From Natronococcus sp. A-GB1 (GTDB taxonomy: Archaea > Halobacteriota > Halobacteria > Halobacteriales > Natrialbaceae), in the NCBI RefSeq assembly GCF_029688845.1, contig NZ_JARUKW010000007.1, forward strand, positions 124,001-188,000: a DNA stretch of 64,000 nucleotides. The letters are read 5' to 3'. Position 1 is the stretch's first letter. The number at the start of each line of letters is the position of its first letter. This document shows, piece by piece, positions 6,206 through 60,947 of this stretch. Position numbers and translations under genes: made by a program. Under the pieces are notes generated by a model, which was given only the letters and a program-made list of their open reading frames with translations, ran no database searches and had not been told where the DNA came from.

Positions 6206-6448
6206 GAAGGAAGGGTTATTTCCGCCCTGGAATTTCGCGCCCAGCCGGGTTGCCCCGACTTCCTCTATCCTCGGACTCCGGCGTTGAGAACGAATCTCGT
6301 GCCATCGTATCCCGACCTATTCGGACGGGACGACTTAACCTCGCCGGTCACGGCACCATCTGCATCCATTAACGAACTGTCACATCGGCGTCGGTGTTCG
6401 ACGCGAGGGACCCCAACGACCATCGGGGAGCCCAGCGTAGCCCACGGC

Positions 6449-57226: not shown

Positions 57227-57600
57227 TACCGGACGTGGGTTCGACGGCGGCTTGAGGGTACTGGTCGGCTCGAGGAAACATCCGTTCGTCTCAGCGAGAG
57301 CGAGTCCGAACTGCGTCACGTTCGCCGCTCGGTCTTCGTTCGGTAACCGATTGCATAGATAAGGAACAGTCCTCTTCTCCGAGACTACCCGGGCCACACT
57401 GCGGTGGCGCGCGCTGGCGATCAGGTCGAGCAATAGCGAGAACTGATCGTCAACATCGTGTGAGGGATGAACGAGGGAACGGAGTGACTGAGAGAATCGG
57501 CTGGGGAGGGCGTGGCAATCCCGCGTGTCCAGAAGTAGCAGAACGGTATTGTCGGCCACAGTACTCTATTGTCAGCCACAGTAGTAGATCGAGCCATTAC
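57227..57600. other. No gene seen
   Basis: About 370 bases with only Ser/Arg-rich random frames on both strands. No TATA-ATG pair with coding composition was found. The right edge runs into the first IS200/IS605-type hairpin. Confidence 0.4.
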
Positions 57601-57650
57601 GGAAGTTCGAGGAGAAAGCCCCGCCGTTCACGGCGGGGATGAATCCGACA
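57601..57650 (+). mobile_element. IS200/IS605-type right-end hairpin, relic 1
   Basis: GTTCGAGGAGAAAGC then hairpin CCCCGCCG-TTCA-CGGCGGGG (57619-57638) and ATGAATCC. It has the same layout and TTCA loop as the relic at 17640-17687. No tnpA or tnpB coding sequence precedes it. Confidence 0.65.
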
Positions 57651-57679
57651 AAATCTACGTGAACCACGTTTGACGTGCT

Positions 57680-57975
57680 ACACAGATATTTTAAGTCATA
57701 TGGTTGCGGATTATCATGTGTCCGAGGCGGTCTACCCGCCCCACTAATCGGACAATATCGGGATTCCCCGATTTCACGCAGAAAGAACCTCTTTCTGTTG
57801 TGGGCTCGGGGTGCAGCAAGAAAGTAGCTCCGACTCCCATGCCGGGATAGGAGTAACGGCTGGTTGGCACAGCCAGTAGCCGTCATCAGGGCCGCTACAA
57901 ACCTTAAACATCCCAACTCAGCGGTACGGTGCCGTGGGAATCTTCGCCCTTCAGGGCGGAGAGGATGTCAAGTCT
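57680..57975 (+). mobile_element. IS200/IS605-type non-coding relic 2 (possible omega RNA-like segment)
   Basis: About 290 bases without coding potential end in GTGCCGTGGGAATC and hairpin TCTTCGCCC-TTCA-GGGCGGAGA (57941-57962), then GGATGTCAAG. This is the usual 3' end of haloarchaeal TnpB genes and their overlapping RNA. Internal stems include GGCTGG-TTGGCA-CAGCC near 57859. It could be a MITE-like derivative that kept the RNA part and lost TnpB. Expression is not known. Confidence 0.55.
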
Positions 57976-58135
57976 GCACTCTTCGTCCACCAAGTTTGAA
58001 TCACGACTCTCCTGTGCCTCGGTGATCAGAATCGGAAACTACTGCGCAGCGTCGCCACTTCGGGACGTGAGGGTTCAAAAAAGGCGGAATACCGCGAATC
58101 GCAAGGGCCGGACGGAGTCCGGTAGTTAGTCGGCG

Positions 58136-60508
58136 TTAGTTCTGACGGCGGAGCGCGAGCATCGCGGCGCCGAGCAGTGCGACGATGGCGACGGCGACAC
58201 CGAAGCCGGGCACGGTCTCGTCGTCGTCGGCGGCGTCGTCAGCACCGTTGGCGTCGTCGCCGTTGGCACCGTTCTCGCCGTTCTCACCGTTGGCACCGTT
58301 CTCGCCGTTCTCACCGTTGGCGCCGTTCTCGCCGTTCTCACCGTTCGCGTCGTCCTCGTCGCTGACGGTCAGCGTACCGGATGCGCTGTCGTCACCGGTT
58401 TCGACGGACCAGTCGATGTCAGCTTCCTCGCTGGTGTCGAAGTCGAAGGACTCGGTCACGGAGTCACCGGCGTCGAGCTCGAGCTCCTCGGTGTACTCCT
58501 CGTCACCGACGGTGGCCTCGAGCGTCGCGTTGCCGGCCTCGTCGTTGTTGTTCACGACGGTCACGTCGAGGCTGGCGTCGTCGTCGACGTTAACCTCGGA
58601 CGGAGCGTCGGCGTCAATCTTGAAGCCGTCCTTCTTCTCCTCCTCATCGTCGTCAGCGGAGACGAAGACGCCCTCGGCCTCGTGTTCAGGCTCGTCGCCA
58701 GCGGTCACGCGGAGGGTTCGGATCTCGTCACCTTCCTCGTGCTCGCTGAGGTTGAAGGTCGTCATCAGCATACCGTCACCGTCGACCTCGGCGTCGGAGG
58801 TGTAGACCTCGGAGGTCGTGCGGAGTCGGAAGTCACCGTCCGTGCTGGGCGCGAGGTTCGTCTCGGCCGTCAGCTCGGACTCGTTGTCAGCTTCGATCTG
58901 GAAGCGGTCGTCCTCGTCCTGGTCGCCGACGAATTCGACGTAGGCTTCCTCGATGTTGACCTGAGCGTCAGCGGTCTCGTCCTCGTCAACGTACGGGTTT
59001 TCATCGTCGACGGTGAATGTCACGTCCCAGGTCTCGTCAGCGTCCATCTCGTCCTCGGTCGCGTCAACGACGACGAAGAATCGGTTCTCGTCCTCGTCGA
59101 CAACGACGTTGTCGCTGCTAAGGTTCTCGTCCAGCGTGAAGCTGTCAGCGCTACCGTAGCGTGGTTCTTCAGTGTCCTCGAACTCGAGCTCGAGGGTGTC
59201 GTCACCGGCCCACTCGCCGTCGTCGAGAGCGTAGCCGTAGATACCGGACGCTTCAACGCCGACAACGAGGAGGTCCTCGTCGGCGACGGAGTCAGTGGAG
59301 GTCGCGGAGTCTTCGATGTCGTCGAGTTCAACGTCTTCCGCATCGAACTCGTCACCCGCGAGGTTCCACGTGCTCATGTCACCGGTCGATCGCTCCTCGA
59401 GGAGGAGGACCGCGGCGTCAGTTTCTTCGTCGGTGTCAGGCGTGACTTCGAGCTCGTAGTCACCGGGGAGGAGTCGCTCGTCATCCTCGAGCGTAGCCTC
59501 ATCGTCACCGTCGAACTCTTCCGTAACAGTCACGTCGTCAACGTCGAGTTCCTCTCCTTCTTCGTCGAGGAGGGTAACGACATCGTCACCGTTGCCCTGA
59601 CCCGCGAGGTACGTGTTGTACTGCACCGTCACGTTGTCCTCGCCGTCAACGCCTTCGATCTCGATAGTGGCGTTGTAGAATTCTTCCTCGTCGGTCATGT
59701 TGACCGTGAGGTCGTCAGTGGCGTCGTGTTCGATTTCGAACTCGGCGACGTCACCGACGTTCTGCTCGTAGGTGGAGTCGCTGAACTGCGCGTCAATCTC
59801 CGGCTCCTCGCCGACCGAGATCTCGGCCATGTCCTCGGCCGTCGTGTCAGTCACTTCAACGGTGAACTCGTAGTCACCGGTGCTCTGGTCAGAGAAGTCC
59901 GCATCGAAGGAGTCGTTCTCGTCCTCCTCAACGTCCTCGATGAGGATCGCATCCTCGAGCTTCTGGTCGTCCTCAGCGTCGAAGATCTCCGCGAGGTCGT
60001 CCTCGTCGATCGACTCGTTCTCGTGTTCACCGCTCACGTGAACGTCGACGAGATCTCGCTCGTACTCACTGACGTCCTCGTAATCGAGCGTAACGTCGTC
60101 GCTCGATTCGATGGCATCGTCGGAGAAGTCAACGTCAATTTCGTGTTCGTTGACCCAGAAGTTGTTGGAGGTATCAGGGTCGTAGTCCTCGATGTCGACA
60201 CCGTCGATGTGGTATCGAGCCTCGTCGAGTTCGCTCGTGTCGAGAGTTGCAACACCATCGTCATCGACACGGATGTTCGCAACGACGTCGTCGCCCTGCA
60301 TCAGGTCAGCGCCCGAGTCGAGGCCGCTGATTTCGACTTCTTGTCCAATCCATACATCTCCGATATCGTCTGCATCGAATTGCGCATCAGGCTCGTCTGC
60401 AGCGACAGCGCCCGAGAAGGACGCCGCCATCGCGAAAACAGACATAACCATCAGCGCGGCAAGGAACACTGCACGTCCCTTTTCGCGGAATGAAGTTTCG
60501 CTTGTCAT
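58136..60508 (-). CDS. Surface (S-layer-type) glycoprotein with PGF-CTERM anchor
   Basis: 790 residues from ATG 60508 (MTSETSFREKGRAVFLAALM). The N-terminal signal (RAVFLAALMVMSVFAMAASF, cleavage near AVAADE) is the haloarchaeal S-layer type. The mature chain is extremely acidic, with repeated beta domains and many N-x-S/T sites (ENESIDE, NVTVQYNTY). The C-terminus has a Gly/Glu/Asn/Ala-rich spacer (GENGENGANG repeats), then PGFGVAVAIVALLGAAMLAL and RRQN, the archaeosortase-processed PGF-CTERM. It probably forms or joins the S-layer lattice. The Thr-rich O-glycosylated spacer usual in such proteins is replaced by the Asn-Gly repeat. Confidence 0.88.
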   Translation of the reverse strand: MTSETSFREKGRAVFLAALMVMSVFAMAASFSGAVAADEPDAQFDADDIGDVWIGQEVEISGLDSGADLMQGDDVVANIRVDDDGVATLDTSELDEARYHIDGVDIEDYDPDTSNNFWVNEHEIDVDFSDDAIESSDDVTLDYEDVSEYERDLVDVHVSGEHENESIDEDDLAEIFDAEDDQKLEDAILIEDVEEDENDSFDADFSDQSTGDYEFTVEVTDTTAEDMAEISVGEEPEIDAQFSDSTYEQNVGDVAEFEIEHDATDDLTVNMTDEEEFYNATIEIEGVDGEDNVTVQYNTYLAGQGNGDDVVTLLDEEGEELDVDDVTVTEEFDGDDEATLEDDERLLPGDYELEVTPDTDEETDAAVLLLEERSTGDMSTWNLAGDEFDAEDVELDDIEDSATSTDSVADEDLLVVGVEASGIYGYALDDGEWAGDDTLELEFEDTEEPRYGSADSFTLDENLSSDNVVVDEDENRFFVVVDATEDEMDADETWDVTFTVDDENPYVDEDETADAQVNIEEAYVEFVGDQDEDDRFQIEADNESELTAETNLAPSTDGDFRLRTTSEVYTSDAEVDGDGMLMTTFNLSEHEEGDEIRTLRVTAGDEPEHEAEGVFVSADDDEEEKKDGFKIDADAPSEVNVDDDASLDVTVVNNNDEAGNATLEATVGDEEYTEELELDAGDSVTESFDFDTSEEADIDWSVETGDDSASGTLTVSDEDDANGENGENGANGENGENGANGENGENGANGDDANGADDAADDDETVPGFGVAVAIVALLGAAMLALRRQN

Positions 60509-60947
60509 TTGTTGTTGTCTTGTTGGTTGGTTTGCGTGCGATCGAGCGGAGAGCGAGTCAACCATCAGCGGTGTCGCAGCCGACTCGCCCCGGGTAGGGG
60601 TAATCCCCTCTTTTGGCAACTGTGTAATAAGCTTTCTGAACGACCACTCTGATTCCTAATATGTCCAATAACGTTCGATAGTTGCATCTGAGGCTTCTTT
60701 GAAGTCTTTCGGATATCCTGTAGCACTATACTGTAAACTACTGATTGGCTGATTCTACGCCTCTAGCGTACGTATTTCTTAGTTATGATTAAGATCTAGA
60801 TGCAACTTTAGAGGACTATTATAGTTAGTTCAATAATGGCATCAATCACTGAGGGCGCCCTCGAGCCATCACCTCGAGAACACCAAACAACCACAACCCC
60901 CGCTAGAACAGAGAAAACCACGCGCGAAAAGAGCCGACCGTCGACGC
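60509..60947. other. Upstream region of the surface glycoprotein; no gene seen
   Basis: About 440 bases, AT-rich in 60620-60840. It must hold the promoter of the surface glycoprotein; several TAAT/TATA-like tracts prevent choosing one. A 10-bp inverted repeat, AGTTGCATCT (60680-60689) and AGATGCAACT (60798-60807), brackets about 110 bases. Confidence 0.4.

What the first reader, a model, noticed from the sequence alone, without database searches (positions are those of the whole stretch)
57601..57975. Two TnpB-type 3' ends without TnpB: candidate solo guide-RNA relics
Two right-end hairpins with TTCA loops lie within 375 bp with no transposase or TnpB frame. The second is preceded by about 260 bases of structured non-coding DNA that matches the expected 3' RNA region of a TnpB element. 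Known: haloarchaeal tnpB genes make sense-overlapping RNAs, and TnpB uses such RNAs as guides. A guide RNA gene without its nuclease could act with a TnpB elsewhere; the sequence just after 57975 would be the guide.
Basis: partly seen in the sequence, partly recalled or inferred. Interest (0 to 1): 0.58.

Follow-up and report, generated by a model that had tools for sequence, protein, structure and literature searches.

The report
Guide-RNA transposon without its nuclease
A 371-base jumping DNA element in a salt-loving archaeon carries no protein gene but keeps what looks like a complete guide-RNA gene, so it may borrow a DNA-targeting protein made by other elements; related copies occur in many haloarchaea, each followed by a different potential guide.

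Summary
The two hairpins are the left and right ends of ONE element, window 57601-57971 (371 nt), preceded by TTAC and ending in TCAA. A sister species has the uninterrupted site. It is a palindrome-associated transposable element (PATE) of the IS200/IS605 kind, with a second, 96% copy in this genome and related copies across Halobacteria. It does not look like a relic: 42 full-length copies share a TATA-like box, a covarying ~255-nt RNA core and exact ends, with unrelated flanks. The 3' 150 nt of the core align end to end with Rfam sot0042, the guide RNA of haloarchaeal TnpB (E=7e-19, below the gathering score). The core keeps the nucleotides that encode the TnpB C-terminus, without a reading frame. 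The 5' ~100 nt form a domain found only in TnpB-less elements. One genome (Halorubrum yunnanense) has 13 copies with 13 different potential guides. Most likely it is a solo omega-RNA gene that borrows a TnpB in trans and targets its own empty site. Transcription, loading and targeting are inferred. In this genome both related tnpB genes are frame-broken, and this TnpB clade lacks the usual RuvC-II glutamate.

The parts
57597..57600 (+). TTAC target site (would be the TnpB TAM in the empty site)
   Evidence: TTAC precedes nearly all aligned copies; the empty site in G248 reads TTAT at this place
57601..57971 (+). whole PATE (non-autonomous IS200/IS605-type element), 371 nt
   Evidence: alignment of 42 full-length copies of 346-381 nt including TTAC; uninterrupted orthologous site
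57601..57652 (+). left end with hairpin 57619-57638 (TTCA loop)
   Evidence: conservation 0.89-0.90; shared with the tnpB element C1:340215 at 85% over 55 nt and with other element types
57689..57696 (+). TATA-like box TTTTAAGT
   Evidence: TTTAW at 33-34 nt before GAGGCGG in 33 of 42 copies, 5 occurrences at all other spacings; promoter function inferred
57716..57821 (+). 5' RNA domain, seen only in TnpB-less elements
   Evidence: R2 model: 0 of 17 tnpB loci, 4 of 4 second-family PATEs; 58 of 59 hits in 20 genomes lie in a listed R1 hit; compensatory changes in columns 65-85 of A1
57822..57971 (+). omega-RNA scaffold
   Evidence: Rfam RF02656 sot0042 at 57822-57962, model 1-174, 73.3 bits, E=7.3e-19
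57846..57874 (+). stretch that in tnpB encodes DRSNGWLAQP; here kept without a frame
   Evidence: 100% over 30 nt with C1 tnpB; third codon positions 95.5% conserved
57940..57971 (+). right-end hairpin (TTCA loop 57950-57953) and TCAA end
   Evidence: conservation 0.95; paired in the consensus
57972..57991 (+). predicted guide (flanking DNA)
   Evidence: position by analogy with TnpB omega RNAs; differs in every copy listed; inferred

Best explanation
57601-57971 is a non-autonomous IS200/IS605-type transposable element (a PATE) whose only gene is a solo omega RNA. SHOWN by sequence: single-element boundaries, precise insertion next to TTAC without duplication, an RNA core with covarying helices homologous to the guide-RNA scaffold of haloarchaeal TnpB elements, and a 5' domain found only in TnpB-less elements. 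INFERRED: the RNA is transcribed from the element's own TATA box and runs through the right end into the flank, so that about 16-20 flanking bases become the guide; it loads onto a TnpB encoded elsewhere and directs it to TTAC plus guide, i.e. to copies of the site that lack the element. Cleavage there followed by repair from the filled copy, or blocking of the empty copy, would keep the element. Its own locus is spared because there the guide is preceded by TCAA, not TTAC. Transposition would need a TnpA supplied in trans.
For: Boundaries and empty site. sot0042 match over the whole model; the same family scores 163-216 bits on 5 of 6 tnpB elements and 72.5 on the sixth. RNA-level conservation of the DRSNGWLAQP-coding stretch without a frame. 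Covariation: 55 double-change cells against 19.5 in shuffles, 0 of 500 shuffles reach the score. TATA-like box at fixed spacing in 33 of 42 copies. 5' domain absent from 17 of 17 tnpB loci tested. Genomes with a strong solo hit hold a tnpB at least 80% identical to P0001 in 11 of 12 cases against 26 of 104 others, Fisher p=1.0e-5. 13 copies with 13 different downstream sequences in one genome.
Against: No transcript or protein-binding data. The sot0042 score is below the gathering score (73.3 against 88). In this genome both related tnpB loci are frame-broken. The TnpBs examined have Gly in place of the RuvC-II Glu, so they may not cut. The guide finds no target in 9 genomes of the genus with up to 3 mismatches except its own locus. 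The co-occurrence test ignores phylogeny, and its thresholds were set after seeing the lists. The 42 copies were selected by similarity to the window.
Confidence: 0.58

Rival explanations
1. Passenger PATE: the interior is only carried along, or is conserved as single-stranded DNA structure used by TnpA, and makes no functional guide RNA.
For: PATEs are mobile without any gene (PMC3119063, passages). Other elements with the same ends but another interior exist (L113-L116). No transcript was examined.
Against: The interior is as conserved as the ends, the promoter-like box is kept inside a variable stretch, helices covary, and the interior is homologous to a guide-RNA family.
Confidence: 0.2
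2. A functional RNA that is not a guide: a decoy that occupies TnpB, or a regulator of TnpB elements, with the extra 5' domain as the working part.
For: The 5' domain is specific to TnpB-less elements. The scaffold would bind TnpB. The genome's own related tnpB genes are broken.
Against: The right end, the TCAA edge and therefore the guide position are kept exactly in nearly all full-length copies, which a decoy would not need (though transposition would).
Confidence: 0.15
3. Orphan in this strain: the family works as described, but this copy has outlived its nuclease here and is now silent in effect.
For: R1 and sot0042 find only two strong tnpB-linked relatives in the genome, C1 and C2, both frame-broken.
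Against: A frame break in a draft assembly can be a sequencing error; other TnpBs of the genome (18 PF07282 hits) might accept the RNA; this concerns the strain, not the element family.
Confidence: 0.4

Closest known systems
PATEs of Haloquadratum walsbyi (PMC3119063, passages read)
   Same: Short, no transposase, subterminal palindromes, no target duplication, ends like IS605-type elements; [quoted passage not shown]
   Different: The passages I read do not mention guide RNA, promoter or RNA structure; the Haloquadratum elements were not aligned here.
sot0042 / sotRNAs, omega RNAs of haloarchaeal TnpB (Rfam RF02656; PMC8303175 and PMC12558985, passages and one section read)
   Same: Scaffold homologous end to end, right-end hairpin, guide position after the element end.
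   Different: Known sotRNAs overlap the tnpB 3' end and are reported as processing products of the longer transcript; this one has no tnpB, a TATA-like box, an extra 5' domain and a shortened internal hairpin, and scores below the gathering score.
PATE of virus HRTV-DL1 and Halorubrum lacusprofundi (PMC10544981, section 12 read)
   Same: TnpB-less PATE with strong transcription of one end, interpreted there as a possible ncRNA.
   Different: 489 bp, not homologous by R1; only a weak HgcC match.
Standalone omega RNAs and guide-bearing PATEs or IStrons reported in bacteria (Altae-Tran 2021, Meers 2023, Zedaveinyte 2024; recalled, not read)
   Same: Guide RNA separated from its nuclease gene.
   Different: To be compared by a specialist; none of these was fetched or aligned here.

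Membership tests
PATE | Palindromes near both ends, no terminal inverted repeats | tested here: met
   Hairpins 57619-57638 and 57945-57958; the repeat finder gives no inverted pair across the region
PATE | No target duplication, precise insertion | tested here: met
   Uninterrupted site in G248
PATE | Too short for a transposase gene | tested here: met
   371 nt; longest + strand ORF among 42 copies is 91 aa
IS200/IS605-derived non-autonomous element | Ends shared with a tnpA or tnpB element | tested here: met
   Left and right ends shared with C1:340215-341752 and with Haloplanus L010
IS200/IS605-derived non-autonomous element | Mobilised by TnpA in trans | not testable with these tools
   One Y1 transposase in the genome; its ends were not matched to this element
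sot0042 (RF02656) | Reaches the Rfam gathering score (88 bits) | tested here: not met
   73.3 bits, E=7.3e-19
sot0042 (RF02656) | Sense-overlaps the 3' end of a tnpB gene | tested here: not met
   No tnpB frame here; the homologous coding stretch is kept without a frame
TnpB omega RNA (functional sense) | Homologous scaffold ending at the element's right end next to a would-be guide | tested here: met
TnpB omega RNA (functional sense) | Pseudoknot of known omega RNAs | not tested
   Only nested pairs were modelled
TnpB omega RNA (functional sense) | Transcribed and bound by TnpB | not testable with these tools
   No RNA-seq or RNP data on hand

The most novel reading that the evidence does not exclude
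A guide-only satellite transposon: a lineage that shed TnpB, gained its own promoter and a dedicated 5' RNA domain not seen with TnpB, and spreads as a dispersed set of guides (13 in one Halorubrum genome) that re-aims the TnpB of other elements at its own empty sites, making it a parasite of an RNA-guided parasite.
Probability: 0.45. Interest if true: 0.78.

Novelty: new variant of a known kind. Interest (0 to 1): 0.6.

Why it matters
If the RNA loads onto TnpB in trans, a single nuclease would serve many dispersed guides, a CRISPR-like arrangement built from transposons, and PATEs, described in 2011 as transposase-free repeats, would include guide-RNA genes. It would help explain why such small elements persist in haloarchaea, and it offers a natural, promoter-bearing guide-RNA format that can be tested in Halobacterium salinarum, where a copy sits on pNRC200.

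Tried and rejected
Rejected: two right ends (one element). Rejected: the antisense ORF 57572-57916 as a gene (no Pfam match). Not usable: transcription evidence by way of the HRTV-DL1 PATE (no R1 match in the first 6 kb; only a weak HgcC match). No copy in the phage collection at blastn E<=1e-5 and no exact match of two core patterns in IMG/VR. The guide search in 9 genomes of the genus found only the element's own locus.

Limits of the counts. The 42 copies were chosen by similarity to the window: 71 loci were searched; 41 passed the filters (full model length, E<=1e-99), plus the window. Dropped were truncated copies (such as L029, L030, L049, L055, L056) and the second family. A1 holds 41 of the 42 cores (one identical core dropped). 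A2 holds 32 of the 40 distinct 5' domains listed. One search scored 17 candidates per genome, so copy numbers are lower bounds.

Full report
WHAT IS THERE. The region holds one element, 57601-57971. The own genome holds a second copy, 96% identical, at C3:18584-18957 with unrelated flanks. Aligned copies have sharp edges: TTAC before, GATGTCAA at the end in nearly all, unrelated DNA outside. The joined flanks of the window copy align to the orthologous place in G248 without the element (GAGCCATTAT|GTCTGC-CTCTTTGTCCAC, search), so the insertion is 371 nt with no duplication. G248 is Natronococcus amylolyticus by identity of a fetched stretch, so the window probably belongs to Natronococcus. TTAC and TCAA are the sites I recall for IS608.

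RELATION TO A TNPB ELEMENT. The own genome has 18 hits of the TnpB C-terminal domain and one Y1 transposase. One tnpB element, C1:340215-341752, shares the left end (85% over 55 nt), a 30-nt stretch (100%) and the right end (90% over 39 nt) with our element. That stretch encodes DRSNGWLAQP near the TnpB C-terminus. In our element the same nucleotides persist without a reading frame, and third codon positions are about as conserved (95.5%) as first and second (97.6%, 98.8%) over 42 copies: the stretch is kept as RNA.

THE RNA. Rfam's sot0042, a guide RNA of haloarchaeal TnpB, aligns end to end at 57822-57962, 73.3 bits, E=7.3e-19, below the gathering score of 88, which is why the default scan missed it. 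The same family scores 163-216 bits on five of six tnpB elements given and 72.5 on the sixth. The alignment of 41 cores folds into 59 pairs, 98.1% of cells paired, 55 double-change cells against 19.5 in shuffles; the covariation score is reached by 0 of 500 shuffles and by no slid version, while the number of further pair types is not above the shuffles (376 of 500 reach it) (relatedness can inflate such scores). The model R1 also finds second-family PATEs (142-183 bits for the five tested) and tnpB 3' ends (58-96 bits).

A SOLO-ONLY 5' DOMAIN AND A PROMOTER-LIKE BOX. Conservation drops after the left end (0.71-0.77), falls to 0.61 at 57697-57721 and rises to 0.87 from 57722. Inside the variable stretch TTTTAAGT is kept: TTTAW lies 33-34 nt before GAGGCGG in 33 of 42 copies, with 5 occurrences at all other spacings; the remaining nine have variants such as TTTTACG or TGTTAAG there. 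With the usual archaeal spacing (recalled) transcription would begin at the start of the conserved core. The 5' domain, 57716-57821, has no Rfam match. Its model R2 hits none of 17 tnpB-bearing loci, none of 4 other short elements with the same ends (L113-L116), nothing in L120 (gene content not determined), and 4 of 4 second-family PATEs. In 20 genomes 58 of 59 R2 hits lie in a listed R1 hit: R2 is present in 35 of 35 listed R1 hits at 250 bits or more, 13 of 14 at 130-250 and 10 of 55 below 130. For those ten, the outlier and one other, 12 of 12 fetched loci lack a P0001-like tnpB by tblastn at 1e-3.

DISTRIBUTION AND PARTNERS. 333 of 391 Halobacteria genomes have some match, many only to the ends; R1 finds 85 of 116 at E<=1e-6. 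Of the listed R1 hits, 61 of 61 at 130 bits or more have no adjacent tnpB among the rows typed, while 44 of 89 below 130 do, the RNA ending 61-81 nt past the tnpB match in 43 of these and 213 nt in one. Genomes with a hit of 250 bits or more hold a tnpB at least 80% identical to P0001 (Haloplanus TnpB) in 11 of 12 cases against 26 of 104 (p=1.0e-5). This threshold was set after seeing the lists, and the test ignores phylogeny; the 12 genomes fall in 7 genera, 6 of them with such a tnpB (counted by eye). Halorubrum yunnanense (G072, named) carries 13 copies, each after TTAC, each followed by a different sequence; 12 of the 13 end in TGTCAA and one in TGTTAA.

HOW IT MOST LIKELY WORKS. See the best explanation. 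Shown: element, ends, RNA homology and structure, solo-only domain. Inferred: transcription, loading on TnpB in trans, targeting of the empty site. Known sotRNAs are reported as processing products of the longer tnpB transcript (PMC8303175, passages); a solo gene would need its own promoter and a defined 5' end, which the TATA-like box and the 5' domain could supply.

WEAK POINTS. No RNA data. Both related tnpB loci in this genome are frame-broken, so here the RNA may be orphaned. The six TnpB proteins examined carry Gly where relatives with solved structures have the RuvC-II Glu, so cutting, as opposed to binding, is uncertain. The guide finds no target in the genus with up to 3 mismatches besides its own locus, and the empty site of G248 differs from it in TAM and guide. 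All 42 copies were selected by similarity.

NOVELTY. PATEs (PMC3119063), sotRNAs (PMC8303175, PMC12558985), a strongly transcribed PATE in another Halorubrum system (PMC10544981) and, by recall, standalone bacterial omega RNAs are known. A PATE family with its own promoter-like box, a solo-only RNA domain and a TnpB guide scaffold was not seen in my ten paper searches of an incomplete library. I call it a new variant of a known kind.

Noticed in passing
window about 57394-57545: A separate dispersed intergenic repeat of about 130 bp: the left flank matches many places in the genomes of the genus (75-94% identity) and in Natrinema thermotolerans CP031304.
   Followed up: no
L010, L021, L096-L099: All six TnpB proteins of this clade examined have Gly where relatives with solved structures have the RuvC-II Glu (IxxGDLSGIRE): possibly a rearranged or inactive nuclease site.
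   Followed up: partly
window 57855-57984; L112 972-1101; L114, L116, L119: Rfam HgcC (RF00062), an archaeal orphan ncRNA, matches these right ends below its gathering score (21-37 bits) and its model extends about 20 nt past the element end: HgcC may itself be an IS605-type guide RNA.
   Followed up: no
L113-L116: Short elements (about 370-600 nt) with nearly the same left end (96-100%) and a similar right end but another interior and no P0001-like tnpB: other PATE families that share the ends.
   Followed up: partly
L072-L094: A second PATE family (about 365 nt, ends in GAGGTCA) with the same 5' domain and scaffold at 67-72% identity.
   Followed up: partly
L048, L061 and L045: Solo elements lying close to a tnpB of another clade (22-31% identity to P0001), as if inserted beside other elements of the same kind.
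   Followed up: no
window 6227-6279 (-): leuA-Halobacteria leader RNA (Rfam RF03001, 68.6 bits).
   Followed up: no
window 58136-60619 (-): Long acidic, probably secreted surface protein with a repeated GENGANGENGEN stretch before a C-terminal membrane anchor (reading of the ORF; no family search made).
   Followed up: no
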